In this document: positions 4,621-63,445 of the stretch, in pieces
How positions within the stretch are numbered: position 1 is the first letter of the stretch
How the letters are laid out: each line of letters opens with the position of its first letter
Assembly (NCBI GenBank): GCA_950295325.1
Contig: OX485808.1
Span: 312,501 to 376,500, forward strand
Direction: 5' to 3'
DNA length: 64,000 nt
From: Polytrichum commune
Taxonomy: Eukaryota > Streptophyta > Polytrichopsida > Polytrichales > Polytrichaceae
The notes under the pieces: model-generated
Database searches by the model: none
What the model saw: the letters and a program-made list of their open reading frames with translations, nothing else
What the model was told of the DNA's origin: nothing
Program-made: the position numbers and the translations under genes

Positions 4621-5642
4621 CCCCATCCATGCACACAAGGGCGGCGCCAACGTACTCTCCTTCGAGGATTGATCACTTCAACTTTACACTCACCCTTTTC
4701 AACTCAATCCCAATCACACCCTCCTTGATGGTGCTTCATTACGTGAAAGTAACGTAACTTATTATCACTAGATCGAAGTGTCATCATCAAACCACAAGGG
4801 TTTATAGTAGGGGTTGGGGGTCGCGATTCGCCACTCCGTGTGCATTAGAAGCCACACCGTACCTCACAACATCGATCGATTGATAGCTCCATGTCGAAAA
4901 GGCATAAAAATGGATTTAAGGATCAACACTCAATATCTTAGACCTAAAGGCCCGTCCCCACGTGGCTTTACCATATAACCAAAGTCTTTCTTTAAAAAAA
5001 AGTAAGTGGGTGTCACTCTCTCACTTATAGCGGATGCACCTAGCTATCCCGATGCACCTACAAGAACTTGTTGTGGAGGTTTTCGAGTAGGTTTTAGTTA
5101 AGTAGCTTTCACACATGTTTGTTGTTTTATCTATTGAACAATGATATGTTGGATAGATTTTGTCCCATCTTCAAATGTATTTCCACTCATCTAACTTTAC
5201 CGTCTTTTTTTTGTTTTGTTGATGGAGTTCCTCGTGCCCTCATAGCTAGATAAGGCTAAAAGCAACCAATCACAAGGGCCGGAGGCGACACTTTTCAAGG
5301 TCCTACATTCTTACCTCATCTCTAGGGTACTGATGCGAGGGTCGGTGCTTTAGGGTTAAAAACCTTTGCTTTTAAACCATGCTACGTCCTTTACCAACTA
5401 GGCTTAAGACTAGATGTGTGAAGGTTTGTGTTTTTTAGAATGAACTTTTAGGCTAAGCTAAAGTCAAGTGGGAAGGAGGCATAAGAGTGTTGGCCGAGTT
5501 TTGTTGGCTCTGTCTGTAGGACAGAGACTATGCATCAACTTCTTCGTTTCAAGAGCAAATTTCCTAACCACTTTGTGTTCACACTTGGACGTTACTTGTT
5601 CTTGTTATTTTTGGTCCACTTTATGTAATGTGGATGTTAACT

Positions 5643-5677
<35 letters not shown>

Positions 5678-6500
5678 GTGCTCCCTAAAATGCATTGAAA
5701 GAAATCTAGTTAACTATAGTTATTTCAGCAGTTCTTGATTATTTATTTTTAAAAATTCGGGTGATAAATGAGTAGCTTCAATCCTTGACCCGTATTTGAG
5801 AAGAAGGTGCACAAAATCCAAGAAAGGTATGGTATAGTGAATAGCCATGGATTGGCATGAGCAAAGTAATCAGCTACAATTGTAGTCTTTCATAGCAAAG
5901 GACATAGCCTCACAGTTCTACCGTTTTCTTGTTGCACTTGTATCACCATTTCCATATATTAACTTTGGCATTTGGCATTGACTTCATCCACAACATGTAG
6001 AGTGTTCGAATTTTCGGCCTATCATTGTGCTTCTACTATAATTTCATGATTAAAAACCAAAGTTGTGTTAGCCCTTATAAATTTGTGGTTGTTTCATCTC
6101 AACTACATTTCCTTATGCTATTTAGTGCGAGTGCAAAAAAATGTGGGTTGGATTGATGCCAAGGATGTGCATATCATCTTTAAGCATGGTACAAGTCATT
6201 GGTTAATCTTTGAGTAAGTTACGTTTGAGAGCACTTGTGTGGCACCCACATTAATCCCTACTGCAAAATTAGAATCATCTTACACAATAAATTACCATGA
6301 TTAGTGTGCGTGCAACGTTCCACATCATTAAGAAATATTCTGTTTATATATATATATAATATTTGTTTGAAATAAATATATGCCATGTTATAAAATAGTT
6401 CAACTTGTCTACTTGGCTAGTGAAAAACATTGTCGGCTATCATATCCACCCTTGAACCCCCTAAAAGTACCATACAATGTACACATTTGATGTAGTGCCG
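4621..6500. other. Intergenic DNA without identified genes
   Basis: Holds a (TA)n microsatellite at about 5,648-5,673 and a second TA-rich tract near 6,345. No coding or repeat signal beyond chance was seen. Confidence 0.4.
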
Positions 6501-6599
6501 CCCACACTAATCATCATGGACCCACATAAATGATCTTGCATTCACTAGGTGGTAACCAAAGAAAGTGGCAATCGGACACTTGTTGCTACCCAACAAGTC

Positions 6600-7590
6600 A
6601 TGAAGGCCACTCGATTGAGCCCCTTTATTGCCCCAATGAACTTGGAACTTTCATGCCATCGTCGATGTCTAGGGCAATTCAACCTACTATGACCGACATA
6701 TTTTATGATATGCCACTAGTTCATGGGAACGAACTCCATTGTGAAGATTTGAGAAGGAGAACCTCTTCATTCCAACATAATTTGAGAAGATAGCAATGGT
6801 CGTAAAGTTGAAGTTCTCAAGTTGGGACAACTAGTGAGAATCTTGTTCTCAAAATTTAGGAGACAAGATGGCTGAGGAAGTTCAATAGAAATTGAAAAGT
6901 TGTATATTTCAAGAATACAAGTACATGGGAATTCAAGTATCCAAATTTGGAGTTCATATGCCTACTCTAGAAGTGGTCAATGCTCATTGACTTGATGACG
7001 AGTGTCTCTCACAATAAGCTTGAATGCCAATTGTGGAACATGTTTGGTTTGGGGGTGTTTCCCATACTATTGAAGACGATTGCTCTTGTAATGTGCAACT
7101 CTCACATGCATGGAATTTTTCTTTCTCCTTCAAGTCTTACATAACAACACTTGGCGCCAAGGTGTTGCACCTCCAATGCCATGTATTTTGCAAGCACGAT
7201 TGCCCACTTATCTTGGGCCACCTTTGCAAAACGAATAGTACTCAGCCTAAGTATTGTTCACTCGGCAAGGGTGAATAGGCGGGTGGGCTTACGACCTTTG
7301 TTTCACCAAAATTGGTATTCCATTCATTATTTTAAGGTTGGTTAGCCAACCATCGCGTGAGCCAGATATGGGGTAGCTTGTCGCAATGGCAATGAGGCTC
7401 AATGTTGGGGAAAATAACCTCACAAATTCTTGGCTTTCTTCTAGGGCTCCCCTTGTAGAAAGGACCAACACTAGTAGGTCGTGAAACATCGTTCTCCTTC
7501 AAATCAAAATGTTATTGAACGAGACCATGAACCTATCTATTCTTGAGACATTAAAGAATCTCCATGTTGAGTTGGGGGGGGGGGGGGGGG
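6600..7590 (+). repeat. About 1-kb repeat, copy 1, ending in poly-G
   Basis: Collinear with 31,470-32,175. The translated blocks MSRAIQPTMTDIFYD and PLVHGNELHCED match MSRAIEPTIINIIYD and PLVCGNQLHYED in the other copy, so it may once have coded, but stops break it. It ends GATCTCCATG...GAGTT followed by 17 G (7,574-7,590). Confidence 0.65.
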
Positions 7591-7752
7591 AGGGCAAATG
7601 AAGACACAGAATGGCTTCAGAGTGGGTTACCATCTTTTTGGGAGAATCCCTATGGGTCTCCTACACAATACTCTATAAAATATTAATACGATACATCAAT
7701 TTTAATGCCAAACCAAACCTTATATACAAGGTGATGCCAAGGTAACATGAAC

Positions 7753-8331
7753 ATTTCATTTCCACTTCTCAATGTAAATGTACCCTAAATTATGGCCGTG
7801 CGTGATCCCTGTGGGCATATTTACCACATGACCATGACAACGAAAGAAAAAAGAAAAAATTGCGATAAAAATTGCAGTAATCACCCAAAAAGCTGCATAG
7901 TAATTATACTTTACAACTTTCCGCTCACCAACCTTTTCCACTCATTGTGGAATAATACGGAGATTGAAGATTTGTGTGTGTGGGGGAGGGGGGGGGGGCT
8001 AATAATGATGCTCCCTTTTACCTAGTAGCAACTTGGTGTTTTTGGTGATTTAATTTCCCCTTCTCAACGTAAATGCACCCTAAGCAATGCCCACGAGCAA
8101 TTGGGCCGACCCGGGGCACATTAACACATGACCACAACCGACAAAAGGAAAAAAAACTAGGGATAAAAATTGCAATAATTACTTAGAAAAGCTGTGTAGC
8201 CATAATTACGAGGCCGTAACTTTCCGCTCACCAACCTTTTACCCACTCATTATAGAAGATTACGGAGTGTGAAGATCTCTACCGGGCCTACAATGCTTTC
8301 CAGTAGCCACTTGTGTTGGGTTTTGGTGATA
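7753..8331 (+). repeat. Tandem duplication, two units of about 290 bp
   Basis: Unit 1 (7,753-8,049) and unit 2 (8,050-8,331) share CACTTCTCAATGTAAATGTA / CCCTTCTCAACGTAAATGCA, CACATGACCA, GATAAAAATTGCA, TTTCCGCTCACCAACCTTTT and a closing TTTTGGTGAT. Unit 1 has gained an 11-G run (7,988-7,998). Confidence 0.85.
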
Positions 8332-8339
8332 TGTAATCC

Positions 8340-8472
8340 AATAACATTTATCATGGACGGTTGAAATTTGGATGAAAATCCACTTAATAAGTGACAGTCA
8401 CTTGCGACATTGGAAATCTACAATAATGCCCATATTTATTTACAAGGAATGACAAACAATGTCAGGTGTACA
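8340..8472 (+). repeat. MITE family A fragment
   Basis: Retains the internal blocks AAGTGACAGT, TTACAAGGAATGACAAACAA and AATGTCAGG of family A, without the terminal hairpins. It is interrupted on the right by the element starting at 8,473. Confidence 0.6.
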
Positions 8473-8968
8473 TTAGGGCCACTTCACACACGAGACTGAG
8501 AGCCCGTGACCAGTAGTACACTTCAAGCACTCTCATTGGTGGAAAAGGCGGAGCCGCTCCAAGTTTGCTTCACACTACGCTTGAGGGACCGACGGAGTAT
8601 GTGAATGCAAGATGGATGTAAAGTATACATGGCATCAAATGGATCATGTTTCATGGTCACTTGGACTATTTTCAAAAAATGCCTCTTGGAGGTAGGCCTA
8701 ACACAAAACCGGGAGACCATGGCACTCCGAATGTTTATAACTGTTGGTTTATTTTATTTAATCATGTGTGAAGACCCGCATGAATAGAAATGCATTGAAA
8801 GAACATTTGGTTGAGGGCCTGGTCACATGTGACTTCACACTACATTTGAGGATCTATGACCACACTACGTGATTTTGGAGGTGTGTTGGGACGGCCTTTG
8901 GGCACTTTCTTTTGGGCTCTCACAATTTCATGGTCATGGCTCTTGGCTCGTGTTTGAAGTGGTCCTTA
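8473..8968 (+). mobile_element. TIR element of about 495 bp (copy 2 of the 1-361 repeat)
   Basis: The left end TTAGGGCCACTTCACACA then CGAG is the inverse of the right end CTCGTGTTTGAAGTGG then TCCTTAG. A second inverted block is CCCGTGACCA / TGGTCATGGCTC. The right part matches window positions 1-361 closely. The ORFs crossing it are not conserved between the two copies, so it is non-autonomous. Confidence 0.75.
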
Positions 8969-9562: not shown

Positions 9563-9890
9563 ATATTGAGCAAGACAATTAGGACCCTTATCGGTGACAC
9601 TCCATGGGCGGTCTCCAATTAGTGTTGAGCAAGACCATTAGGAACCCTTATCGGTGACACTCCATGGGCGGTTTGCAATTAGTATTGAGCAAGACAACTA
9701 GGACCCTTATCGGTGACACTCCATGGGCGGTTTGCAATTAGTATTGAGCAAGACAATTAGGAACCCTTATGGGTGACACTCCATGGGTTAGTGTTGAGCA
9801 AGAACATTAGGAACCCTTGTTGGTGACACTCCATGGACGGTTTCCAATTAGTGTTGAGCAAGACGATTAGGAACCCTTATATCGGTGACA
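9563..9890 (+). repeat. Six-unit minisatellite, about 60 bp per unit
   Basis: Units are marked by GAGCAAG at about 9,567, 9,627, 9,689, 9,749, 9,797 and 9,857; one unit is 48 bp. The consensus holds ATTGAGCAAGACAATTAGGA, CTTATCGGTGACACTCCATG and GGCGGTTTGCAATTAG. This is the right-hand interior of MITE family A (ATTGAGCAAGACAATTAGAA, TCGGTGACACT), so it probably arose by amplifying a MITE end. Confidence 0.9.
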
Positions 9891-10089: not shown

Positions 10090-10160
<71 letters not shown>

Positions 10161-10500: not shown

Positions 10501-13500
10501 ATTGTCAGCTTTCGTATAAATGTGTGCACATTTGGATGGGAGAGTTTGTGTGTAGTCATTCAAATGTGGCTTCGCCACGCCAATGATTATAGCCAGTGAG
10601 AGAATTTGAGTGAGGTTTCCATTTGCTTATTTTGATGATTAAGTTACTTGAAGTGGAATTCAGATACCATAGGGTGTCGGTCATTCGGTTCGATGTGTGA
10701 TGATTATTTGGTGGGGTTGCTTGGCCACGTGTCGTGCCCACATTGGTCAAGACCCGTGGTTGATTCGACGTGGGAGTTTCGTTTCGGCACTCCAAGTGTT
10801 CAACCGGGCATTCCTCTGTGGTGTTAAGGAGAGGGCATGTGTATTTACACGAAGGTAAGTGGGTCTTAAATGGACGTTTTTAGCTCCGTAGGATATGAAA
10901 CGCAACACAATTAGTGTGAGATGATTAGGGGATTTTCCATTGTGTCTTCTACCATTATCTTCATATTTTTCAAAGCTCATATGAATATTATTGTTTCCAT
11001 TTCTTCTTTCTTCTAAATGATCAAGGAGCCCCCCCCCCCCCCGGTGCCCCCAAATTGTGTTGATTATTGAGCGAGAATGGTTGATAGATTATGGGCACGT
11101 AGTTCACACTCTCTTAAACACATGTACTTTTGATGTTTAGGCTTTGTTCGTAGATCCACACCTATTAACTATGCACCACTCAAATATGGGTGTCTATTTC
11201 AAATGAGTAACCGATTTAGTCAGCCCTGCTCACTTTAGTGACCAAGGTCCATGGCCGTTGCTTTCTAGATTATCCCAATGGCTGAATAAATGAGTGATGG
11301 GACCCACCTTGCTTCACAAAAGGTCATCAAAAATAAGATTGACCATGACAGACATCCAATGAGAAGTGACATGGAATCCTACATGTCATGAAATGAATGA
11401 TGTTTGATGGGCACGCAAATTTTTTGGCGCCAAGACAACCCAAATAGCTACTCTCGGCTATTTTTATTTTTATTTTTATTATAATAAACAAGAGGGCGAT
11501 CAGCCGCTTGAAACATGTCTCGTGACCAAGGCTTTCAATGTGATGTGGATTTCTCTTCGTCATAGCTCCAGACCAAGGGTCGTGGCCATGAGAAGTCCTA
11601 AATCATTTCTTCTCACACACCCCGGTCACTAGTCCAAACATGCCATGAATGACCCTTAACCCTTTAGAGTCATGTGCATGGCCTACACGCAAAATTTCTA
11701 CAAGACGTCATCACCAAGTCTTGAAATTGAAAATAGTATTCAAATGTACATGAGTTTGAGACTTTACTTTATACGTTATTTTGTGTCATGTCGAGGAGGA
11801 ATGTTTTATTATAGTCATATGTGATATTGGTGATCAATGCACCAAATATGCCCATGTTGTTTATTTGAACCCATTTTCAACTACATTAAGGTATTCACAA
11901 ACTATACCTAATGAATGACTTTATTTTAGATATATAGTCACTTTTGATATGATAAGCAAAAAAGTTGGAAATATGAAGCTCGAATACACAATTTTGTGCC
12001 AAACACATTGTAAAATTCACATGATGAGGAGATTTAAGACACATTCAATGATGCTGCACATATAAATATTCCCAGTAGGAACCATCCATCGTAACAAAAT
12101 CCTCACTTATATCAAAAGTTAATGTACAATTGTCGGTCTTTTGGACATGAGACATGGCCAAAGACAGACAAGCATGTTTGTCCAGGCATTGTTTTACTAT
12201 ACCATCAGGTGCCCTATTACTACTACATTGATTGACTGAGTGGCCCCAACCACAGACAACAAGTTCCATGTACCTAACCTTCAACTATGGGCAAAAGAAT
12301 TCATTGTAGATATATGCCCAAAAAAAAATTGTAAAAAAAACGACGTGTAGTGGCATTTAGTCTACTTTCCCCCCAGAAAAAATGATTTAAGTCATCCCTC
12401 AGTTTCAGTTGTACAAGTGTGCAATTATGTGGCAACTACAGGAAGCAAGTAAATATTTTACACATGCTTCAGGCTTCAACTTAAATCACTTTGGTCAAAT
12501 AATTTCAGAACATGGACTTTGAAAGAAGTGACTCGGACCTGGTACTCTCTCTTGATTAATACTGTAAGTTTTAGAAGCCTGGAAATTTTTTAATGAATGA
12601 GTGAGAAGTTATGGAACCTGGAAGTCTTGAATGTGCATTGTGCAAAGATACGGCCCGATACTGTCAGTGTACTCTGACATATCTTAGAAATATTAGTATA
12701 CATAGGACCCTGTAAATTTTTATATATGTCTGAGTAACTTGGAGGGGCGACTTTGTGAATGCATGCACATCACACATGTACCTATACGCTGTAAATTTTA
12801 ATGTTTTTTTGATGATGTGGCTGCTACACATTTAGTGCGTTGATAGTGCTTGGGATATTAATCTTTTTAAGTAAGTTTGCAAACCGATCCTCAACAAATA
12901 TCCTCTTCACGTGGGTAGCAAATGCAACTGTCAAAATCCGTGGAAGCAAGAAGTTAAAGTCACATGTATTCATTGATCTGGACTATTTTGCGTGTACTGC
13001 TCTGAGAATACACCAGTATTTAGCGTACTTGGAAATATTTCTGAAAGGATACTTTTCAATGGTTTCTTAGTTCACCTGACTTTGTGAGTACCTACTCGGT
13101 AGCACTGGACCTTCCACATACACTTCATGAGATGCGTGCAGTTTGAGGTTGCAGCCACGCACGAACTAGCTCAAAATTGATTGAGCCCTGCACCATCATA
13201 AAGTATGAGTTCATTGGGCCATGGCACCCAAATTTCCCAGACAATCAAATAATACCGCGCACAGTAAATGTCGGATTAATTGTTGTTCAGTATATTATGT
13301 TCCAACATATAATTCCAGACTTCCCGTATCCATAAAAGCCCAAAAAATACATGAATGATTGGCCCCCCACAATTAATTAACAGGCTCCCTTCATAAAAGG
13401 AAGATGACATGGTTGAAACACCAACATGTGACAAACCTGGAGTGTAATTTATCAGCCCTAATGAATGGCGAAAGACTCCTTTGGCACGGTGCACATAATG

Positions 13501-13700
13501 ATCTCAATCGACCCACCCATAGTCGCAAAACGCACTTGATGCACCTATCATTTCTCCCCCAGGCCGGTGTGCATGAAAATTCAGCGCGTTGCAGGCAGGT
13601 AAGTTAGTGGGCCCTGGAAACAGATCTCATGAGCATGCAGGTAGTCAGGGAGCAAGCTGGGGAGGCAAGGCAAAGCTCCCTCCCCCAGTGCAGTAAATCA
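10500..13700. other. Intergenic DNA with repeat fragments
   Basis: Contains a C14 run (11,029-11,042), a repeat N fragment (11,050-11,240) and a repeat J copy (11,690-11,960). From about 12,000 the DNA looks single-copy. A 76-codon ORF at 12,840-13,070 has no family match that I can see. No gene supported. Confidence 0.45.
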
Positions 13701-14244
13701 AGTTACTTACCCGGATACAAATGCAGCACAGCAATCTCACTACATCCAGCATGTACAACAGGTTTGGTGCGCGAGTATCTGTGATGATGGTTACCCATAT
13801 ATATATGTCGTACTAGTGGCAGCCGGCTGGTACACAAGATATGTACAGCCCCGTGGAATTTTGCGGATCTGTGACAAATTCATAGGCATTAATGATCAGT
13901 TGCGAGGGAGGGAATGTGGAGAGGCCGCGAGCCACAGAGCTACCTAAGACTTAGGGCCCCTGACTGCGAATCATGCTGCAGACAAAAACGGGGAGAAATC
14001 GAATTGAATTGAGTTGAATTCATGAATCGAATTGAATCCAAGCTACATAGCTAGCTAGCATTGGCATTGCGTGCAGGGAGGGGAAGGTGGAGCTTGCATT
14101 GGTCTCATGTAGGCCAGCATTAAAGAAAAGCTTCATAGTAGTGCAGGCCGTGCACAGCAGCAGCGGCAGGGGCAGAAGCTGGGAGGCTGAAGGAGTACAG
14201 GCACTTGAAAGTGGGGAGCCTGGAGCCCATGATTGTGGCCTCAT

Positions 14245-14376
14245 TCATGATATGATACAGCTTTGGGTGCAGGCGACATCATCCACGTCACTTCCGTTGC
14301 AGGGGGCGCAGTCGACACATTGATGAGGGAGGCCACAGCCACGCGCAGATAAGATCAGACAGAAAAGGACTCGCAT
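14245..14376 (-). CDS. Possible tiny cysteine-rich peptide ORF
   Basis: A 43-codon ORF on the same strand as the TPD1-like cluster and about 280 bp past its last exon. It begins MRVLFCLILSARG, a short hydrophobic N-terminus, followed by a Cys-dense part with motifs CGLPHQC, VDCAPC and ACTQSC (seven Cys in total), then stop. I do not recognise the Cys pattern as EPF, RALF, GASA or defensin. The hydrophobic stretch is short for a signal peptide. It may be a real secreted peptide, a terminal exon, or chance in moderately GC-rich DNA. Confidence 0.2.
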   Translation of the reverse strand: MRVLFCLILSARGCGLPHQCVDCAPCNGSDVDDVACTQSCIIS

Positions 14377-14657
14377 TCCACTGGACGCCTCATCATGAGT
14401 TGACAAGAACATCAATTCATGCCAATTTTGAAAAGGTGGAAAAAGGGTGGAAAAAGGGTGTGGGGCAAACTTGCCAAGCTGCTTCTTAATGTGGTGGAAT
14501 GTTTAAGAACTGTACACACACATGACAATCAGTTGTGCAGGGACAAAACTCTTTGCTAGGTATATGATAACCTTCCACTGATTGGACGAAGGCAAAAACG
14601 TTGGGGGATCAGCGGCTATAAGCGACTATGTAGTTAGCTAGGTGCATTATCATCATC

Positions 14658-14962
14658 TCATCGACAAAAGTTGGCGGACTTGAAGCGGAGAGGGTACATG
14701 AAAGAATTGGCATACTGGAACTGGATGACGCTGCCGTGGGGGAGAGCCCTACCCCCGTTGACAAGGCAGTCATTGTACGCGACGCGGGTGAAGGTGTTGG
14801 GGTTGGGAGGAGGGGACGAGGCAAACCAGCCACAGTACACATGGATGTCTGATGGAGCACACTCAGACATGCAGGTGTTCACTATCTGGACAGTGTATTG
14901 AGGGATGCCCACAGAGCCATCGCGGCTTTGGGTTATGCTAATGTCTTTGTTTGTGCACACAT
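14658..14962 (-). CDS. TPD1-like terminal exon, third copy (partial or alternative exon)
   Basis: An intact TPD1-like terminal exon: VCTNKDISITQSR, GIPQYTVQIVNTCMSEC, SDIHVYCGWFASS, YNDCLVNGG, FQYANSFMYPLRFKSANFC, then Arg and stop. It opens at a TATTGCAG acceptor (14,963-14,970) in phase 1, exactly like the other two copies. It is most like the second copy, so the pair looks like a recent duplication. Only about 275 bp separate its acceptor from the second copy's stop codon, and no clear exon 1 or 2 is there. A faint YTRIIGF in the upstream reading frame may be a decayed exon 2. Most likely it is an alternative last exon of the cluster, or a 5'-truncated copy. A read-through ORF from 15,182 also exists but contains the likely intron. 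Confidence 0.65.
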
Positions 14963-15234
14963 CTGCAATATCAACCACAAAAAATGTACACTCAATTATT
15001 CCGGTGTCAGAGCATGTCGACGACCCTCCTCTCAGATATTCTTCCCACACTGACGACGACAGCAGCAGCAGCTCCAGAAAAGGGAAACCAATAATTCGGG
15101 TGTACAGTACCCTCGACTTTGGAGCACGAGAAACAAGATCATGGAGAAGAAAGAAGAAAAAATCAAAGGAGTGCGCTTGCACTAGCTGGGACTCGGAGGA
15201 GATCAGGAATTAGTGGGACACAAATGGAACTTGC

Positions 15235-15240
15235 TTTATT
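15235..15240 (-). terminator. AATAAA polyadenylation signal overlapping the stop codon
   Basis: On the minus strand the second TPD1-like copy ends TGCTAATAAAGC, so its TAA stop overlaps a canonical AATAAA. Use of this signal would give almost no 3' UTR unless cleavage lies well downstream, inside the next copy's upstream DNA. Confidence 0.45.
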
Positions 15241-15772
15241 AGCAGAACTTAGCGGATTTGAATCGTAACGGGTACATGAAAGAGTTTGCATACTCAAAGC
15301 GAACAATCTCTCCATGCCTAAGCGGTCTACCTCCATTAACAAGGCAATCATTGAAGCCAATGCGCCTAAAGGTATTGGGATTGACCAGCGTAGCTGAAGC
15401 AAACCAGCCACAGAGCACGTGGATGTCTGATGGGGCACAATCAGACATACAAGTGTTGGCTATTTGGACAATGTACTGTGGAATGCCAGAGGAGGTATCT
15501 CGGCCCTGGAATATGCTAATGTCTTTGTTTGTACACAAATCTGCAGATAACACACAAGAAGTATTATTCATTTGCCCGCTGATGAGCATAGGTCAAGGGC
15601 CGTGCTACCTACAATACACATGATCCGACTCTTTCACTTTAGGCAGGAATTTCAGGAGGAAGGGTGGGCCACTTACTAGCTGCTAGGAATCGACGACTTG
15701 TGTATCGAATCCTTTGTACCATCTGATCTGGGCTTAGCATGTTTGCAGGTGAATTAGACCTCCTCTCCCACC
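15239..15772 (-). CDS. TPD1-like gene, second copy, first exon not found
   Basis: Two exons of a second TPD1-like gene: 15,772-15,677 (GWERRSNS to RYTSRRFLAA) and 15,540-15,239 (LCTNKDISIFQG through SDCAPSDIHVLCGWFAS, NDCLVNGG and FEYANSFMYPL to the stop). Acceptors are ATGCAG at 15,773 and CTGCAG at 15,541; the donor is CTA|GTAAGT at 15,676. Both junctions are phase 1, as in the complete gene. The first exon matches the end of exon 2 there (YTNRRFL against YTSRRFL). I find no convincing signal-peptide exon in the 400 bp up to the neighbouring gene. Two weak options exist: reading straight through from an ATG at 15,977, or a 16-codon exon near 16,064. It may therefore use the upstream gene's first exon, or be incomplete. 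The terminal exon is intact and looks constrained. Confidence 0.75.
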
Positions 15773-16182
15773 CTGCATTCGAGCAACTAAGCAGTGTAAA
15801 GACAAAAGCTGACTGAACGCAGACATTAACTATGAATATATGCCTACACCTAGTGGATAATCTAAAGAACTCACTAACCCTTGACTGCCCTAGGGTGGGA
15901 TCGAAGGACAATACACCAAGCCCAAGGGAAACTTTCGTCGATGATGCTTTCAACGAAGTAAGGCCATAATCCTGCAATTTACCGTGTTCCCTCGTCCAGA
16001 ATTTCGTTTAAGGTACCACGCCCATCCAGGCAAACTGCTGCAAGGGAATTAGGAAATCCGACCATGTGGCTCAAAATTGGCAACCAATTGGATCAAGGTA
16101 AGGTTACATTCAAGAAAAGGCCTCAAATGGCAAAGGCACAGATCGGTAAGAACATGCTCAAGCTTTGGAAGAATGAACAGGC

Positions 16183-16188
16183 TTTATT
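16183..16188 (-). terminator. AATAAA polyadenylation signal of the complete TPD1-like gene
   Basis: Canonical AATAAA on the minus strand, about 13 nt past the stop codon at 16,201. It is in the right place to end the complete TPD1-like transcript before the second copy, though skipping it would allow a longer transcript through the cluster. Confidence 0.45.
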
Positions 16189-16200
16189 TATGAATATCAG

Positions 16201-17894
16201 TCATGGCCATTTACAAGTGACAGCGGTTTCAACTCTCAGTTGATACGAAAAGGAATTGGCATACTGGAATGTGATGCTATCTCCATAAGGAATGGGATTG
16301 CCATCATTGACAAGACAGTCATTGAATTTTAGCCTTCTGAACACCTTGGGGTTGACAAGTTTGGCCGATGCGAACCAGCCACAGGCCACATGCACATTGG
16401 ATATCGGACACCCTACTGTGCACAGGTTGAAGATCTGAACACTAAAAGTTGGTATACCGTTCGGCAGCGGGCTTCCCGGCCCTTGAAATATGCTTATGTC
16501 AAACTTTGTACACATTTCTGCAATCAACCGGCCAATGTTTACATATAAATCCTTCTACCCATTACAATTGATCACCGTTTCCATTAGATGTTCATGCACC
16601 AATTCCGTCTTATACCTGCGGAGAATGAACTGAACCAACAAACCACTAGGAAATGAGTAAGGAGCTTACCGCCATCTAAAAATCTACGGTTCGTATACTT
16701 GACGGCTCTTCTTCTGGCAGTCGGATGTGGGATCTCATGGGAGTTGTTAAAAATGCTGCTCAGCGGCCTTGTTTTGTTGTACCCCTCTTCCATGATGTTG
16801 ATCACTCCTAAACCTGAAAATTTGGTTGCCATTAAATCGCTTCCGTCAGTACTTCAGACGCAGGTTGCGGGATGAATTACTGTATTGCTGCAACTGTGAA
16901 GCAGATACATATCCAAAAAAATTGACTGGCAAAAGAACATAACAGTACAATTCGTGTACGAGTTTAAATTTAGAGAAAACGAAAAGGCCACTACCGCAAG
17001 CCATTTCCGACTTTCTTTTTGCACTGTTCTTTAACCCGAAACTGGAATTCAATTGTTGGAGACACTTCGTTCGGAATACACAGACGTTCCAATAAACTGA
17101 CCAGCACAATCGTCGTAGCACATGTCGGTTCCAGGACAAGCGTTTCGTCCACATGAATGCGTTGGCCAAGAAATAACAAATTATTAAATGGCCCACAGTA
17201 CAACGAAAATGGAAACAGGAGTACAAGCCCGGGTCTCCTGGTTCAGAAGGTAACGGATGTGAATCCAGTCAGGGGAGTATATATGTTTCTTGAAGTTATG
17301 TCACCCCACTAATAAGGCTGCGTATGTCTGAACCTTCCAGATGGAAGCTATAACCTCTTTCCGAATCACTTCTCTGCATGAACTAACTAGTCGGGGTGTA
17401 TACATTGGTCTTATAGGCGCCACTGAAAGTCTGAACGTTATAGAGCCTACATGGTTCCTATTGCCAAAGGGGTGGCAAGAAGCCCGATAGTTTCAGAGGA
17501 ACAGTAGATTTGCCCCGTCTACTGGAAAAACTTGTACTACAAGTGCGACTTAATTTTGTGTGTAGAATGCTCGAAGAATGAGACTCTCAGCCCACATGAG
17601 AACCTATAGGTCCGATGAGGATACATACTCATTATATGGAACTGAGTCAGCCCTGGATCAAACCTACATTACAATTTTTCTTAATGATTCTACAGAAAGA
17701 AATTCAAGGAGATGATGATTCAGAGATGACAAAGAGAAATAAAGATCAAATAGAGGAACGAGACAGCACTGACCTGTTGTAGAGTCGTCGCAGACGAAAA
17801 GGGGCAAGATGAAGAGAAGAAGACAAAAGATAGAGAGAACTATCATCCGTGGCTGTACAGGGAGGCTGATGACAAGGATCATGGCACCACTCAT
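16201..17894 (-). CDS. TDL1: TPD1-like secreted cysteine-rich protein, complete three-exon gene
   Basis: Small secreted protein of the TPD1 (TAPETUM DETERMINANT 1) family. In Arabidopsis TPD1 is the ligand of the LRR receptor kinase EMS1/EXS. I join exons 17,894-17,774, 16,813-16,670 and 16,517-16,201, both introns in phase 1, giving 193 aa (Arabidopsis TPD1 is about 176). Exon 1 starts MSGAMILVISL and carries a hydrophobic signal peptide ending near LPLFVCDDS. Exon 2 is a variable linker ending KYTNRRFLDG. Exon 3 is the conserved domain: MCTKFDISIFQG, then GIPTFSVQIFNLC, HVACGWFAS, NPKVFRRLKFNDCLVNDG and FQYANSFSY, with the family cysteines in place. An in-frame ATG 33 codons upstream is possible, but the chosen start puts the hydrophobic stretch at the N-terminus. 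An AATAAA lies just past the stop. The family is certain; its role outside anthers is inferred. Confidence 0.9.
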
Positions 17895-18263
17895 TGCCGC
17901 CACTCGTAGGAGAAGAAATTCAGGAACCAAACCGCATTGAAGCTGGAAGACTGAAAATTGTCGATGATCGAAACAGGAGAATGAAGGAGGCACTGCTTGC
18001 TTAATTACTTTCTCACTGTGCCTTTGTCATGCCACCAGCTGCAAGATGATAAACCTCGACACCGTCCCCCATAGTCACTGATACCACTGATCTTTGCAAC
18101 TCCAGGTTCGTCATGAACACGGTATCTGCTTACAATGCAATGCACTTCCTTGCATAGAAGTCAAGAGAGATTATTGTATTCCGTTGAGCATTTCTTCGTA
18201 GTTGTCGATGCTTGATATTGGACACGAGCTACTACTGCTACGTAAACGTTCACTAATACAGAA

Positions 18264-18325
18264 AGAGAGCCAGAGAGAGAGAGAGAGTGAGAGAGAGAGA
18301 GAGACTCTACTAGAAGTATAATACC
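18264..18325 (-). promoter_or_regulatory. Candidate core promoter and pyrimidine patch of the TPD1-like gene
   Basis: On the minus strand a TATTATA-like stretch near 18,316-18,324 is followed by a CT-rich run (CTCTCT repeats, 18,264-18,305), about 370 bp before the start codon at 17,894. Pyrimidine patches near transcription starts are common in plant core promoters. The position fits; the assignment is inference. Confidence 0.35.
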
Positions 18326-18399
18326 GCCGGCCGGCTCACTAGCTAGCTCTGCTATACGTATCTCTCAGGGTAACACGACTTTCAAAACCCGACCAGCAA

Positions 18400-20060
18400 T
18401 GCTATTTGAAACTGAAGAGGTAAGTACAGCAGCAAGTCACAAGGGTTTCCAGACTCCGAGGGTGCAGCAAACCCTAAATGCAGCAGCAATAAGTCTTCAT
18501 TCACATTGACAGTAGGTCAGCAGCATTCAAGAACTGCAGTGCTTCCTTCTGACTGCCAAGACAGAAGCTATCGGGAAATGAAAGCGGGCAGATTCTTTGA
18601 CAGCAACGGAAGAAGTACTTATAATGCAGTGTGCATCCACCTTGCCAGTAAAACGTCGTCAAGGTTGAAGACGACAGAAAGGAAAAGACTTAAGATGGGT
18701 AACGAAGGCAGCAACGCCTGTATCCGTACAGTAGCCTGGGAAGACTCGTAGAATAAACAAGATGATGTTCCAATGACTAATAACTCCTCACGTGAACAGG
18801 CTCATGCACTCTCGCATGTAACTGGAGGAAAAATACTACTATCAAACCCCTTGGCAGACAAGGGAAACATAGGCGGAAAAGTCCTAGCGAGAAGAACCCC
18901 CACATCAAATCCAATCCTCGAGATCACGACACGTATTAACCTTCCGAAGATGTTCTCCTAAGACGAACCGGAGGAGGTAGTGATCAAAATGCCAGGAAAA
19001 AAAGAAGGCCCTCCCAATTCTCCCTCGAGCATTTCACCAAGACGAGCACGGAATCATCAAACTCCAGGAACTTCGTGGCGTCTCCTCAAACGTCAAGGCA
19101 GTTGCCAAGAGATTATTATAAGTCCTCCCACAAAAGGGAGACCAAAAAAAAAACCACACCACAACCACTAGCTGGTCCGTCTCCAGGTCCAGTGACTCTC
19201 CTTCGCGTAATAAACGAAACGTAAACCCTCTTTTCTCTCTCTCTCTCCCTTGAACCTGCGATGATGAATACACAAACTCCGCGGCTCCGAAACCAGCTTA
19301 ATATAATCAACCGACCCCACGCTGGCAGCAGGCAAGAAGAAGAAATCCCGTGCCACTAAATTTCAAATTCTCATCAACCAACGTGCCAATAGGTCTTCCA
19401 ATCCGCTTCAAACCTTCCCGAGGCGCCGAGAATCCACACGGTAATGCTCCACTACGCGGCGCGGCCTACCATGCATATGACAAATGAGAAACTCGCCCTC
19501 CAGACTTATAATACTCCGCACCACTACTGCTGCATGCATCTAAATTGCACCACAACTTGCTCGAATTCAGGCCACACTCTGCAAGAAATGTCTGTAAAGA
19601 TGCGCACGGAGGATCTTAACGCCTGTACACCGCCCTGCGCGCACGAATGGAATTCCCGAACGGCGAAATGCGAAGGAGAAGGGACGCAGTGGGAGGGGGC
19701 TCTTGGAATGTGGAGAAAGGGAAGGCGAAGCGGAAGACAGAAGGGGGAAAGGCGGAGGGGGCGAAATCGCGGGCCGGGTGGAGTGGCGTGGGGGGTGGCG
19801 TGGTAGTAATTATGAGGGCTAGCCCGGCCCGGCCCGTCGGGCCGTATTACTCCTCGCCCCCTAGCTACGTATTTACTGCGCAGGCATGAGTAGACGGCAG
19901 CCCCCCCGTCCTTTCCCGAGGCCCCGGTAATTCTTTAACTCCCTACTGGGCCCCCTTGTTTTCTACCTTTTACCCCTACTCTCTGCCACGTCAGGCCGCC
20001 CGGGCGCCAGCGATTTACTGCGTCGCCTTATTTACTGCCCTGTCCCCGGTGGCCGCCCGT
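18400..20060. promoter_or_regulatory. GC- and CpG-richer segment with no recognised product
   Basis: Stands out from the AT-rich flanks, most clearly at 19,380-20,060 with CGCGGCGCGG and other CpG-dense stretches. No dispersed repeat was seen. The ORFs here are short, overlap on both strands and lack motifs. It may be the distal promoter or upstream leader of the TPD1-like cluster, or a divergent promoter. (CT)n near 19,230-19,250. Confidence 0.3.
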
Positions 20061-21770
20061 GATTTTGTCCCTTGTATGTTAACTCATATTCCTCGCCGCT
20101 TTGGCTGGTTTTTGTGTTTTTTTATTTTATTTATTTACCCTCCGGGCCTCGAAAGTTACTGCGGTTTTTAACCACCACCTGCCTGATTTGGTCGCAAGCA
20201 AGCATTGAAGGGGTAGGGGGGGGGGGGAGTTTTTTAGGCTGCCCGCTCTGCTGCCCCTCCAAATTAAAATGGAAATTTTTAATAAGGGTAGTTAGTTTAT
20301 ATGGACGATTATATGTATGAGGTTTCACATCGAGATGCCTACACTAGGTCTCAAAGTGTCGCATCCGATACTTTTCAACGTGATACTACTTGTCAATTTT
20401 AAGTAACCCTTTATTCACACTATGACATTTAGCGTAGAACATGGGGATGCTCGAGATGATAGTTTTGCAGTCTAGTATGCAAAGGGATGAAATTATTGGG
20501 GGTGTTCAGCATACCAGTGGCAACTGTCATGTGTTTAAATTTCAGTTTAGTATGTTAGAGGAAAGATATTCTTGAGCATACTAATGTCAAGTATTGTTTG
20601 TGTACACTTTAGTCAACTTGTAGAGCATTCTGTAACATACGCATACATCTCATAACATTATTGAACATACTCAGGGCAAGATGTTGGTAAGCGCACTTGA
20701 ATGCCAAGTGTCACGAGGTGACACTAACGATGAAGTTGTCGGTCATTAGTGTCACCTAGCATACGCCGCAAAACAGGGCAAGTGACACTAAACACCATAA
20801 GTGGTGTAGTGATTTATTATCGTGGTCCATATAACTCATCACCGACCCACATTATCTATCTTGCAATCAATGGTTGGAAACTAGCTAGAGGGGATGTCAG
20901 AGGGCACTTGGTGCTACATAAAAAGTCACAAAGACTTAATTGTTTATGGTATGTAGTGTCACTTACTATTTGGAATTGTGCAATGCTATAACTTTTTATG
21001 GTTGACATAAGTTTTAACCAAGTAAAGATGTTAATATTCTATAATGTCCAAACAACCAATTTGATCTTTGTTAGAAAAAAATGAGATTTGTAGTAAATAA
21101 CATGGCGTAGTTTCAAATAGCAAGTTGACACAAAATATCATAAATGGCGTAGTCTCATTAGAACGGCCATCGACACACCATTCTAAAGCCACACTAAATC
21201 CGATGTTTACTGTAGTAGTAATTAGATGTAGTCAAACTTAATGTCAAAGTTTTTGAACTAGCCACGAAGAACTATTCATGTCTAGTGAAAACATTGAAAA
21301 TTATCAATCCATTTTTGAAGTTGGTTTGACACCGGAATTATCTTCGAGGTCCTAGAGTAGTCCAAAGAGATCCACATGACCACAAAACTAATGGAGTATG
21401 GTGGTTTTTAGTCCACATAAATGAAAGTTATGCTTGTATGTGACAAATTTTCATCAACTTTCAAACGTGACCATGTAACCCATCCATGATGGATATAAGA
21501 GGTCTAATAATAAAGACATGTATTTTTGGTTGTTTTGTGGTCAAACTAGGGCTCCCCCACTAGAGCACGGCATAACATCATTCAACCCTTGCAAGAAGTT
21601 ATATGAACCCATGAATATATGAGGTCTTGTGCCTTCATGATTCTATCAAGATGCTTGGATCCACCAATTTTGAGTTGAATCTCATAACTCCTAGATGGGA
21701 ATAACAAGGCAATTGTGTAGGATGAACCACCTATCGATAGAAGAAATTCCTACAATCAATAGTGAATTGA
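20060..21770. other. Intergenic DNA with MITE debris
   Basis: G12 run at 20,216-20,227. A partial CTACACTA-family copy at 20,949-21,080 has GTGTCACTTACTATTTGGAA and AATGTCCAAACAACCAATTT, with further AGTGTCAC fragments on both sides. No gene supported. Confidence 0.5.
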
Positions 21771-21899
21771 CACTAGTAGGGAAGGTGGGTCTACATGACA
21801 CGCCAATTTAACACAAAGTGTTCATAATTGGTTGGTGTCAATCTGGACATTTTGTGTTAGATTGGCGTGTCATGTAAGACCCGTCTTTCCACCTAGTGT
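21770..21899 (+). repeat. 130-bp fold-back with arms of about 52 bp
   Basis: The left arm begins ACACTAGTAGGGAAGG and contains ACATGACACGCCAATTTAAC and ACAAAGTGTTC. The right arm is its complement with few mismatches (GTTAGATTGGCGTGTCATGT, ending CCACCTAGTGT). The loop is about 20 nt. A transcript would form a long, nearly perfect hairpin. Most likely a small MITE and possible small-RNA source. Confidence 0.85.
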
Positions 21900-21939
21900 G
21901 ATGCAGTGTCCAAGAGATTAAATCCCCTACTAACATTTA

Positions 21940-22290
21940 GGGGTTATTTACGTCATGGACCATGAAGTTGTCCCATGTCAAAGGGTGTTTTTCCATGGTC
22001 CGCTTTCTAAAAATGCATTTCAAAAGCCTGTGGGCCCTGACCATGTGTAAACTGAACAAGGACCAAGAAATGTGACCATGCACCAAGAAGTGAATATGTT
22101 GTTTTTTTTTAAATATACATGTCCGAAAAGAGCAGTTTGGGGAATTTTCCTCATGTTTGACCTTCTCCCCTTCTTCTTCGCTTCTTCCCTTGTAACTATG
22201 GAAACCTCTTTTGCTTCTCCCACTCCATTGGACCATGACAATGGATAATGTAGGGTTGACAATAGGCCTTCTGGGGACCCCAAGTCCCAT
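21940..22290 (+). repeat. Partial copy of the 35.6-kb TIR element
   Basis: Begins TTAGGGGTTATTTACGTCAT then GGACCATGAAGTTGTCCC, matching the ends of the element at 35,568-36,142. CATGGTC and AAAATGCA blocks also match. No matching right end was found, so it is truncated or diverged. Confidence 0.6.
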
Positions 22291-44654: not shown

Positions 44655-45830
44655 GTACTCATTCTTGTTGCAATGATTGGGTGGTGTGATTTTGAGAAAG
44701 TTTCGTGTTTCTTGTGGTTCTCCGTGGACATTTCAAGTGATTGTCTGTTTGTTTATTTGTTTGTATGTTTTAGCTTCAAGGCAAATGGAGCTAGGCTTTG
44801 GTGCAATGGCTCTGGGGAAGACGTGAGGAGGTAATTTCTAGTTCTTTTTAGAATGAGCCAATGGTGTGGTTTGAGCGAGTGATGTGTTTCTTGCGATTAT
44901 TTCAAGGAATTGAGTGTTTATTAAGCTTCAAGGTAATGGATGGGAGCTAGGTTTTCGTGCAATGGCTTTGAATTAGATGTGATGAGGTGCTTTCTAGATC
45001 TTTTTTGCAATGATTGAATGGTGTGGTGTGAGAAAATGTCGTGTTTCTGTGGTCCCGTGTGGATTTTTGAAGCGATTACTTGTTGTTTTACTTTCAAAGC
45101 AATTGGAGCTAGGTTCTGGTGCAATGGCTTTGAATTAGGTGTAATGAGGGTTTTTGAACATCTTGTTGCAATGAATCAATCATGTGATTTGAGCAAGTGT
45201 CGTGTTTCTTGTGGTTCCGTGTAGATATTTTAAGTGATTGTTTGTTGTTTTAGCTTCGAGACAATTGGAGCTAGGCTTTGGTGAAATGGCTTTGATTTAG
45301 ATGTGAGGAGGTTTCTACATCTTTGTTGCAATGAGCCAATGGTGTGATTTGTGCGAGTGTTGAGTTTCTTGTGGTTACATGTGGTTACTTTAAGTAATTG
45401 ATTTTTTGATTTTTTTGATTAGCTTCAAGGCAATGGATGGTAGATAGGTTTTGGTGCAATGTCGTCGAATTAGATGTGACGAGGTTTTTTTCAAAAAAAA
45501 TTCTGCAATGAGTCAATGGTGTGAATTGAGTGGCGCGTTTCTTATGGTTTCATGTGGATCTTTGAAGTGATTGTTTGTTATTTTAGCTTGAAGGCAATAG
45601 GACCTAGGTATTTATGCAATGGGTTTGAATTAGATGTGACGAGGTTTTCTCTAGCTCTTGTTGCAACGAGTCAATGGTGCGATTTGAGGAAGTACGATGT
45701 TCCTTGTGGTTCCATGTGGATGTTTCTTAGCGATTGATTGTTTTTCTTTGAGCTTCAAGGCAATGGGAGCTAGGACTTTCGTGGAATGACTTTGCATTAA
45801 TTTTGATGAAGTTTGAGTAAGTTCTGAACG
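44640..45830 (+). repeat. Seven-unit tandem array, about 160 bp per unit
   Basis: Degenerate tandem repeats, best tracked by the block AGCTAGG (or a close variant) at 44,789, 44,945, 45,107, 45,269, 45,442, 45,602 and 45,768, a spacing of 156-173 bp. Each unit also holds a TGCAATGG-like block, a block like TTTGAATTAGATGTGA, and TGTCGTGTTTCTTGTGG. In most units a TTTTAG sits just before CTTCAAGGCAA, resembling a 3' splice site, and a GAGG|GT-type sequence follows. Translated fragments such as QWCDLSKC recur, but stops interrupt every frame over the array. It probably lies in the first leader intron of RGS1. Confidence 0.85.
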
Positions 45831-62119: not shown

Positions 62120-63445
62120 CTACATTCCATGAGGCTGGCCTCCACCACTCTGCATAGGCATTTGATACTGTGACATCATCTGGTGAGGCGCATACATCAT
62201 ACCAGGAGGTGGCTGCTGCCCATAAGGCTGCTGCTGCATCATCTGCATTGAAGAAGGGATGCCTTGCTGATGCATACTTCCATTCATGCCATTCATCCCA
62301 CCCTGCATTCCCATAGGTAACATGCTCCCCTGCGTTCCTTCTTTTCCTCCAGACTGCTCGCCAGTCTTCGACATGGAAGCCTTCTCTCCCTCCAGCTCCC
62401 GATACTTGTGCAGGTACACTTTGAGAGGCTCCACGTAGTCTTCAAATCCAAGGGTGCTCATGGCCCAGAGCAAGTCGTCACCATTGATGGTCTTTCTCTT
62501 TTCTCTCTGGCATTTATCAGATGCCTCACCTACAGCAAATAACTTGAATCAGACACAAGGTGCAGTTGCAAGAGATACACCTACGTCTGGATTTGGTTTT
62601 CTTAGATTCTGAATGCGATGTGAAGATCATGCAAGCATTAGCCCAGTTTCTCTAGAACCGTTGGCACAAGACGGACTTTCAGTCGCAGCTCTACAGAGGA
62701 ATGTCAACTTGAAAATCAGGTAAACCGTTTAAAGGAGAAGGACCTTGGTCGGTAATTCAGTTACTATGATGGAGACCCGTATACAAAAATATCTCATTGC
62801 AGCAGACGCAGCCCTAAACCCTAGATATTTTTGTCCACGTGGTACACTTAGTAACTGAAGCAAATCCAGATCTAAAATTACTGACACACAAACTCATGCA
62901 ACAAAACAAATTCGTGTGCTTCGATTCATTACAAGCACGCTTTGCTTCCAACTGTTTCATTTCACATGTCATGATGAATTTAAATACTTCGAATACACCA
63001 TGATGAATGGCCGATAAACATGATCAAAGTGACTTTCACAAGAATTTAATCAATCCTTGTTAAACCATCAGCTTGATCTTGATCTAATTCAACATATAAC
63101 TACGCATATGACATCGCATCAGGGAACATGAATCCACCACACCACGTACAGCCTGAAAGTTAGAATTCGATCAAATTAGGAAAGCCACTTCCACAGCCAC
63201 ACACACACACCTGTGATGAAACTGATGAATTCCGAAACACACTCTTGTACAGTCTCTTTGGCGTCCTTAGAGATCTTGGCGTTCGATGGCAAAGCTTTCT
63301 TCATGATCCGGCTGACATTCGCAATGGGGAGAAACCGGTCCTGCTCTCTCACCGAGGCATCATGACTTCCATAGTGACCTCCTTCGTTGTCTGAATGCGG
63401 GCTGATTTCGGGGGAGGCTGGCTGATGGCCGTAGCTGTCTGCCAT
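62120..63445 (-). CDS. NF-YB: NF-YB subunit of the CCAAT-binding factor, non-LEC1 type
   Basis: Histone-fold subunit that dimerises with NF-YC and, with NF-YA, binds CCAAT boxes in the nucleus. Two exons, 63,445-63,211 and 62,529-62,120, joined in phase 1, give 214 aa. The N-terminus is acidic and His-rich ([16 protein letters not shown]). The histone fold spans about residues 33-124: [79 protein letters not shown]. Residue 60 is Lys where LEC1-type proteins have the diagnostic Asp (D55), so this is the general, non-embryonic class. The C-terminal 85 residues are rich in Met, Gln, Gly and Pro ([16 protein letters not shown]). The donor is ACAG|GTGTGTGTG inside a GT microsatellite. Identification is secure. 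Confidence 0.96.
63199..63210 (-). repeat. GT microsatellite forming the NF-YB 5' splice site
   Basis: Minus strand reads ACAG|GTGTGTGTGTGTGG from 63,211 downward. The first GT is the donor required by the protein phase; the next GT dinucleotides could act as shifted donors, some of them out of frame. Confidence 0.8.

What the first reader, a model, noticed from the sequence alone, without database searches (positions are those of the whole stretch)
14658..17894. TPD1-like exons that can all be interchanged, with only one visible signal-peptide exon
Every junction in the cluster is phase 1: exon 1 (17,774), exons 2a and 2b (16,813/16,670 and 15,772/15,677) and three terminal exons (16,517, 15,540 and 14,962). 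Only one convincing signal-peptide exon is visible, upstream of all of them. One locus could therefore splice a common leader to three different ligand domains, an arrangement I do not know for this family. The plain alternative is three genes, two of them damaged or with cryptic first exons.
Basis: partly seen in the sequence, partly recalled or inferred. Interest (0 to 1): 0.75.

Follow-up and report, generated by a model that had tools for sequence, protein, structure and literature searches.

The report
One leader, three alternative ligand exons
A plant gene for a TPD1-type secreted signal protein seems to have one secretion-leader exon followed by three alternative final exons, each coding a different version of the signal, and the same layout has been kept in a second copy elsewhere in the genome; the RNA evidence that would prove it is still missing.

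Summary
On the minus strand lie one signal-peptide exon (E1), two cassette exons (2a, 2b) and three terminal TPD1_C exons (T1, T2, T3), every junction phase 1. All 10 collinear E1-to-T joins are open; T1 cannot take 2b, so "all interchangeable" overstates it.

A paralogous cluster on C7 has the same six exons in the same order and phase. T1, T2 and T3 are each under purifying selection between clusters (dN/dS 0.07, 0.04, 0.07), so "damaged copies" is rejected. T3 has no exon 2 or leader in the 276 bp after T2, yet 39 of 42 aligned bases before its acceptor match C7. Acceptor flanks of 2b and T2 are conserved too; that of 2a is not. A C2 locus reads E1-2a-2b-T.

Best reading: one transcription unit with alternative last exons, like calcitonin/CGRP, giving three ligands; T3 lacks the dibasic site Arabidopsis TPD1 needs. 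No transcripts were available, and C7 holds one weak, unconserved second leader candidate. Eight full-text searches, some capped, showed no such layout in this family.

The parts
17774..17894 (-). Exon 1 (E1): start codon and signal peptide, MSGAMILVISLPVQPRMIVLSIFCLLLFILPLFVCDDSTT; phase-1 donor
   Evidence: counterpart in C7 (L013 5596-5713), 23 of 40 alignment columns identical; two genome matches at E up to 10
16670..16813 (-). Exon 2a: pro-region cassette, 144 nt, phase 1-1, ends ..KYTNRRFLDG
   Evidence: C7 L013 6216-6359; C2-locus counterpart L014 4427-4299 with RYTNRKLL
16677..16688 (-). RRFL codons in exon 2a, 8 residues before the first Cys of T1
16201..16517 (-). Terminal exon T1: TPD1_C domain and stop
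   Evidence: Pfam 2.1e-39; dN/dS C6/C7 0.071
15773..15800 (-). Conserved intron end before exon 2b
   Evidence: 60-bp flank score 25.5, 0 of 1000 shuffles as good
15677..15772 (-). Exon 2b: pro-region cassette, 96 nt, phase 1-1, ends ..RYTSRRFLAA
   Evidence: C7 L013 7448-7543; C2-locus counterpart L014 3144-2983
15725..15772 (-). First 48 nt of exon 2b: 3 mismatches to C7 (9 in the other 48)
   Evidence: bins 1,1,1,3,2,4; whole exon 2.0 synonymous differences in 21.5 sites, P 0.0027 uncorrected
15684..15695 (-). RRFL codons in exon 2b, 8 residues before the first Cys of T2/T3
15541..15593 (-). Conserved intron end before T2
   Evidence: score 33.0, 0 of 1000; 43 of 50 aligned bases match C7, one 3-bp gap
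15239..15540 (-). Terminal exon T2: TPD1_C domain, stop codon overlapping AATAAA
   Evidence: Pfam 5.3e-36; dN/dS 0.035; AATAAA also at the C7 T2 stop
14963..15009 (-). Conserved intron end before T3; no exon 2 or leader found between T2 and T3
   Evidence: score 32.0, 0 of 1000; 39 of 42 aligned bases match C7, one 5-bp gap; the rest of the T2-T3 interval is not conserved
14658..14962 (-). Terminal exon T3: TPD1_C domain and stop; carries TR where T1/T2 have RR
   Evidence: Pfam 1.8e-34; dN/dS 0.065
14784..14789 (-). T3 codons TR at the place of the TPD1 K135-R136 dibasic site
   Evidence: alignment; site from PMC4990239 (passages)
14400..14520 (-). Stretch after T3 conserved with C7, perhaps 3' UTR/end of the transcription unit
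   Evidence: score 28.0, 0 of 500 resamples as good

Best explanation
One transcription unit makes up to three different secreted TPD1-type ligands by alternative last-exon choice. E1 supplies the signal peptide. Exon 2a (for T1) and exon 2b, with or without 2a (for T2 and T3), supply a short pro-region that ends in an RRxL-type dibasic motif 8 residues before the ligand's first cysteine. Each T exon supplies a whole six-cysteine ligand domain and its own 3' end. The choice is made by competition between polyadenylation at a near T exon and splicing past it, through regulatory sequence at the 2b, T2 and T3 acceptors and in exon 2b. Shown: the exons, phases, conserved order in a second cluster, purifying selection on the T exons, conserved acceptor flanks, absence of other conserved leader exons. 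Inferred: the joint transcription, which exon 2 goes with which T, the regulation, proteolysis at RRxL, and receptor binding.
For: (1) A cluster on C7 (L013) keeps E1-2a-T1-2b-T2-T3 in order and phase, with one conserved leader exon. (2) dN/dS between clusters 0.071, 0.035 and 0.065 for T1, T2 and T3; of the 25 residues that distinguish T2 from T3 here, 17 are kept in both states on C7. (3) T2 and T3 have no Met before residue 31, so they need an upstream exon; before T3 the T2-T3 interval shows no conservation (169 of 500 resamples as good) except the intron end next to its acceptor and 8 bases at T2's stop. (4) Acceptor flanks conserved for 2b, T2 and T3 (scores 25.5, 33.0, 32.0; 0 of 1000 shuffles each), weaker for T1 (17.5; 2 of 1000), absent for 2a (7.0; 605 of 1000). 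(5) Exon 2b has 2.0 synonymous differences in 21.5 sites where the T exons have 40% (P 0.0027, not corrected for looking at six exons). (6) Protein searches with E1, 2a and 2b gave 2 matches each, one in C6 and one in C7. (7) A third locus (L014 on C2) is E1-2a-2b-T, a plain four-exon order with 2a and 2b under one leader before one T.
Against: No transcript was seen, so no junction is proven. On C7 a weak leader-like frame lies between T1 and 2b (L013 6977, donor score 3.4), not found in C6; frames that hydrophobic are rare (about 0.02 per kb). The T1-2b interval shows marginal C6/C7 similarity (10 of 500 resamples as good), though that frame's ATG is not shared. Exon 2b differs by 10 nonsynonymous against 2 synonymous changes (ratio 1.56), so its low silent change may mark a DNA or RNA element and does not by itself show a constrained peptide. 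T3 has none of six poly(A)-like hexamers within 300 bp in C6, only variants in C7. An internal promoter cannot be excluded: even the 800 bp upstream of E1 do not align between clusters (97 of 500). Two flanking genes have no C7 partner (0 of 2), so the clusters are not shown to lie in a larger duplicated block. The searches also missed the C2 counterparts, so they exclude only close copies. Conserved acceptor flanks were judged against shuffles and the cluster's own other acceptors, not against unrelated duplicated genes.
Confidence: 0.72

Rival explanations
1. Two or three ordinary neighbouring genes: E1-2a-T1 is one gene, and 2b-T2 and/or T3 have their own promoters and short or diverged leader exons that the scan missed.
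For: Separate tandem TPD1_C genes occur elsewhere in this genome (two on C1 about 2.2 kb apart, L016). C7 has a leader-like frame before 2b.
Against: No leader-like exon between T1 and 2b or between T2 and T3 in C6. The C7 candidate is not conserved and its donor is weak. The T2-T3 interval is 276 bp (260 in C7) and unconserved apart from its ends, leaving no conserved exon to carry a start for T3.
Confidence: 0.15
2. A constitutive gene with readthrough noise: E1-2a-T1 is the gene, and T2/T3 joins are occasional or leftover products of exon duplication without a role.
For: Phase compatibility would follow automatically from duplication; no expression data were available.
Against: dN/dS 0.035 and 0.065 for T2 and T3 and kept isoform-specific residues; conserved acceptor flanks.
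Confidence: 0.06
3. Internal starts give leaderless, non-secreted forms, for example from the ATG inside exon 2b (..NMLSPD..), so that the conserved 2b block is a promoter or start element, not splicing control.
For: The ATG and its surroundings in 2b are conserved in C6 and C7; the nucleotide-level conservation of 2b is not matched by its peptide.
Against: TPD1 is a secreted protein ligand (PMC4990239, passages); T3 would still need a join to 2b; the C2 counterpart of 2b has no Met at that place, though it has others further on.
Confidence: 0.05

Closest known systems
TPD1 / TPD1-like secreted ligands of the EMS1 receptor kinase (Arabidopsis TPD1, rice OsTDL1A, maize MAC1, Physcomitrella PpTPD1)
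   Same: TPD1_C domain, six cysteines with nearly the same spacing (28-30/4/9/22/34 against 30/4/9/22/33), signal peptide, variable middle region; dibasic RR in T1 and T2 at the place of K135-R136
   Different: In the passages I saw, members are described with one ligand domain per gene; here one leader precedes three ligand exons, and T3 has TR instead of a dibasic pair. PpTPD1 was reported as one gene against six PpEMS1 (PMC6744412, passages).
CALCA (calcitonin / CGRP) alternative last exons
   Same: Shared exons for signal peptide and pro-region, then a choice of last exons with their own 3' ends yielding different secreted signals (PMC8055025 and PMC13256775, passages)
   Different: Animal gene, unrelated protein; two products, whereas here the three are paralogous copies of one domain; splicing here is inferred, not shown
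Separate tandem TPD1-like genes, such as the two on C1 of the same genome (L016)
   Same: Neighbouring paralogous TPD1_C domains
   Different: Those two frames run unbroken from a Met and (by eye) hydrophobic start through the domain; T2 and T3 here have no start of their own

Membership tests
TPD1-like ligand family | TPD1_C domain (PF24068) | tested here: met
   3 of 3 terminal exons, E 2.1e-39 to 1.8e-34, 118-134 bits against a cutoff of 27
TPD1-like ligand family | Six cysteines with the TPD1 spacing | tested here: met
   3 of 3: 28-30, 4, 9, 22, 34; TPD1 30, 4, 9, 22, 33 computed from positions in PMC4990239
TPD1-like ligand family | N-terminal signal peptide | tested here: met
   E1 only, by hydropathy (3.29 over 10 residues); no dedicated predictor was run; linkage of E1 to T2 and T3 not shown
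TPD1-like ligand family | Dibasic site at K135-R136 needed by Arabidopsis TPD1 | tested here: inconclusive
   T1 and T2 have RR, T3 has TR, in both clusters; maize MAC1 is said not to seem processed beyond its signal peptide (PMC7461258, passages)
TPD1-like ligand family | Binding of an EMS1-type receptor | not testable with these tools
   needs protein work
Alternative-last-exon gene (CALCA-like) | One leader exon upstream of several terminal exons, all frame-compatible | tested here: met
   10 of 10 joins open in C6. In C7 6 of 10 printed as open; the 4 with T2 ran to the end of a slice that I had cut two bases short, the next bases giving TAA
Alternative-last-exon gene (CALCA-like) | Own acceptor and 3' end for each terminal exon | tested here: inconclusive
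   acceptor flanks conserved for all three, T1 least. Poly(A)-like signals: T2 AATAAA in both clusters, T1 AATAAA in C6 and AATAAG in C7, T3 none of six hexamers in C6 and GATAAA/AATAAG in C7
Alternative-last-exon gene (CALCA-like) | Transcripts sharing the leader and differing in last exon | not testable with these tools
   no RNA data on hand
Cluster of independent genes | A leader exon for each copy | tested here: not met
   one in C6; in C7 one conserved plus one weak, unconserved candidate

The most novel reading that the evidence does not exclude
A plant gene uses calcitonin/CGRP-like alternative last exons to send one leader and pro-region onto three distinct receptor ligands, and one of them (T3), lacking the dibasic site that TPD1 needs, is an unprocessed, possibly antagonistic or differently tuned form, so that splicing sets which signal a cell secretes.
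Probability: 0.25. Interest if true: 0.82.

Novelty: new variant of a known kind. Interest (0 to 1): 0.64.

Why it matters
In the moss Physcomitrella six EMS1 receptors but one TPD1 ligand gene were reported (PMC6744412, passages). A locus that makes several ligands from one leader would give a simple way to match more ligands to more receptors, and would be a plant counterpart of calcitonin/CGRP. It is directly testable by a handful of RT-PCR products. Annotation that expects one ligand per gene may well split or lose T2 and T3 (my expectation, not checked).

Tried and rejected
Damaged second and third copies: rejected by dN/dS. Recent gene conversion between T2 and T3: rejected, since T2/T3 within C6 have dS about 2.3 against 0.47-0.76 between clusters. 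A missed exon 2 or leader before T3: none conserved. T3 as an extension of its upstream open frame (183 aa in C6): the C7 frame is 110 aa. Shared acceptor sequence between T2 and T3 from their own duplication: weak (28 of 1000 shuffles in C6, 156 of 1000 in C7). A relic of T1 in the C2 locus: none seen by blastn. A phase-1 intron before the first Cys as a family-wide trait: not resolved; three other members have frames that run through it. Rfam on 12001-22000 at gathering threshold: 0 matches. PDB by sequence, T2 only: two hits at E 0.86 and 0.87. Synteny between the clusters beyond the exons: only scattered matches, several of them with more than one place, which I take for repeats, and 0 of 2 flanking genes shared. 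Naming the species: not achieved; a moss review (PMC13120521, passages) gave no firm match. One search translated T3 in a wrong frame and was not used. In some searches the T2 slice ends one base late in C6, and two bases early in C7; neither touches the 99 codons compared. One search printed the first Cys of the C7 2b-T2 product wrongly (it took a Cys in exon 2b); one search gives the right distance of 8.
Full report
What is there. On the minus strand of the window lie, in transcription order, E1 17894-17774, 2a 16813-16670, T1 16517-16201, 2b 15772-15677, T2 15540-15239 and T3 14962-14658. E1 encodes a start codon and a strongly hydrophobic segment. T1, T2 and T3 each encode a TPD1_C domain (Pfam PF24068; E 2.1e-39, 5.3e-36, 1.8e-34) with six cysteines spaced 28-30, 4, 9, 22, 34, against 30, 4, 9, 22, 33 computed from the positions given for Arabidopsis TPD1 (PMC4990239, passages). 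Every donor and acceptor is phase 1, and 10 of 10 collinear joins from E1 to a T exon are open. T1 lies before 2b, so six exons do not mean free interchange. Equal phases are also what duplication of a phase-1 exon gives, so they are permissive evidence only.

A second cluster. A genome search with T3 gave 21 matches at E up to 10, among them a cluster on C7 (L013) with three domains in the same order. Read by hand and by blastn, it has E1 5596-5713, 2a 6216-6359, T1 6521-6837, 2b 7448-7543, T2 7674-7975, T3 8236-8540: the same six exons, the same order, the same phases. blastn at E 1e-3 gives four like-for-like blocks: E1; 2a through T1; 2b through T2; and T3 with 47 bp before it. The other rows are T exons matching each other. 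Protein searches with E1, 2a and 2b each gave 2 matches in the whole genome, one in C6 and one in C7; they did not find the diverged C2 counterparts, so they exclude close copies only. In a tree of 12 domains T1 pairs with T1 (97/96), T2 with T2 (89/89, under the tool's mark of 95/80) and T3 with T3 (100/99) across the clusters. With dS about 2.3 between T2 and T3 in C6 against 0.47-0.76 between clusters, the three-domain layout looks older than the split of the two clusters. The tool warns of long branches elsewhere in that tree.

A third locus. On C2 (L014) a single related domain is preceded by a leader exon (4688-4592), a 2a-like exon (4427-4299, ending RYTNRKLLPNRD) and a 2b-like exon (3144-2983), all phase 1, and 4 of 4 collinear joins are open. 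No T1 was seen between 2a and 2b and no second domain after T. This suggests a four-exon order E1-2a-2b-T, to which T1 and T3 stand as extra last exons. Whether C2 lost T1 or never had it is open: in the tree T1 groups with an intronless C1 gene at 84/87, which is not decisive.

The three domains are kept by selection. Between C6 and C7, dN/dS is 0.071 for T1, 0.035 for T2 and 0.065 for T3, with dS 0.50, 0.76 and 0.47. E1 and 2a evolve faster (0.49 and 0.45), and 2b gives 1.56 on only 2 synonymous differences. Of 25 residues that separate T2 from T3 in C6, 17 keep both states in C7; for T1/T2 it is 33 of 43 and for T1/T3 39 of 49. The idea that two copies are damaged does not stand.

The T3 argument. 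T2 and T3 have no Met before residue 31, so they need an upstream coding exon. T2's stop and T3's acceptor are 276 bp apart (260 in C7), and that interval, less 8 bp at its start and 50 at its end, shows no conserved sequence between clusters (score 11.5, 169 of 500 resamples as good). The 47 bp just before the T3 acceptor are conserved (39 of 42 aligned bases, one 5-bp gap; score 32.0, 0 of 1000 shuffles). So T3 looks like a spliced exon whose donor lies upstream of T2: 2b, 2a or E1, all phase 1. That is the strongest evidence for alternative last exons.

Signs of regulation. Flank scores for the 60 bp before each acceptor, C6 against C7, are 7.0 for 2a (605 of 1000 shuffles as good), 17.5 for T1 (2 of 1000), 25.5 for 2b, 33.0 for T2 and 32.0 for T3 (0 of 1000 each). 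Of the rest, the start of the 2b-T2 intron is conserved (0 of 500), the 2a-T1 intron weakly (39 of 500), the E1-2a intron not (214 of 500), the 600 bp after T3 yes (0 of 500). Exon 2b has 2.0 synonymous differences in 21.5 sites where the T exons have 40 percent (P 0.0027, one of six exons and not corrected), with 3 mismatches in its first 48 nt and 9 in the rest. Conserved intron ends and low silent change are, from general knowledge, marks of alternatively spliced exons; a promoter or another DNA element would also fit. I had no set of unrelated duplicated genes as a background.

Leaders. A scan for ATG, hydrophobic stretch and phase-1 donor over 20000..14655 minus gives three starts, all in E1; the C2 locus gives one. 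C7 gives E1 and one more at 6977, with a weak donor (3.4 against 6.0 for its E1), between T1 and 2b. Frames that hydrophobic are rare (3 in 128 kb at 3.0 or more, E1 included), and the interval has marginal C6/C7 similarity (10 of 500), but in C6 there is no such frame and the ATG is not shared. I report it as the main point against.

How it probably works. E1 supplies the signal peptide. Exons 2a and 2b both end in an RRxL-type motif (RRFL, RRML) 8 residues before the first Cys of the domain in C6 and C7; on C2 RREL stands 9 residues before it, and RKLL ends the 2a-like exon. An intronless relative on C1 has NRKLR with RK 9 residues before its first Cys. PMC4990239 (passages) says RR (RRXL) sites occur in RALFs and that AtRALF23 is cut at its dibasic site by the subtilase AtS1P; that the same happens here is inference. 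If so, the mature ligand comes wholly, or nearly so, from the T exon. Arabidopsis TPD1 needs another dibasic site, K135-R136, inside the domain (same passages). T1 and T2 have RR there, C2 has KR, T3 has TR in both clusters. T3 may thus be a ligand that is not cut at that site. [quoted passage not shown]

What is known. [quoted passage not shown] Ten full-text searches were made and read as listings. Eight bear on the question; two were about moss genomes and calcitonin. Three of the eight were capped: 15 of 923 shown, 15 of 94, 12 of 25. No listed title or abstract start reported such a layout in this family or another plant ligand gene. The library lacks most subscription papers, so this is weak evidence of absence. 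The closest working parallel is CALCA, where shared exons 1-3 are joined either to exon 4 or to exons 5-6 (PMC13256775, passages).

Verdict. It is a new variant of a known kind: a TPD1-type ligand gene with a shared leader and three conserved alternative last exons.

Noticed in passing
L015 (G000:C1:69702501-69706500), 1269-1910 minus: A TPD1_C gene whose frame runs unbroken from leader through domain (213 aa), with a YINRKL motif before the domain; a match of the same score lies on the small contig C48.
   Followed up: partly
L016 (G000:C1:50947501-50953500): Two tandem TPD1_C frames of 240 and 191 aa, each with its own Met and hydrophobic start by eye, as a contrast to the shared-leader cluster.
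   Followed up: partly
L013 6977-7040 (+): Leader-like frame MCKFELLILLLLHLLYSLALT between T1 and 2b on C7, weak donor, not found in C6.
   Followed up: partly
window 44943-45799: Array of about five 162-bp tandem repeats (74% matches) in a stretch of strong GC skew (0.27 at 44-46 kb).
   Followed up: no
window 9566-9890: Array of about 5.6 copies of a 60-bp unit, near a perfect (AG)33 run at 10094-10159.
   Followed up: no
window 62120-62548 (-): Exon matching the NF-YB/CBF histone-fold family (PF00808, E 3.1e-5), with a glutamine- and methionine-rich tail.
   Followed up: no
window 17900-20000 (-): Higher G+C (about 0.50) with CT-rich runs upstream of E1; possibly a long 5' leader or promoter. 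No C6/C7 similarity was seen in the 800 bp upstream of E1.
   Followed up: partly
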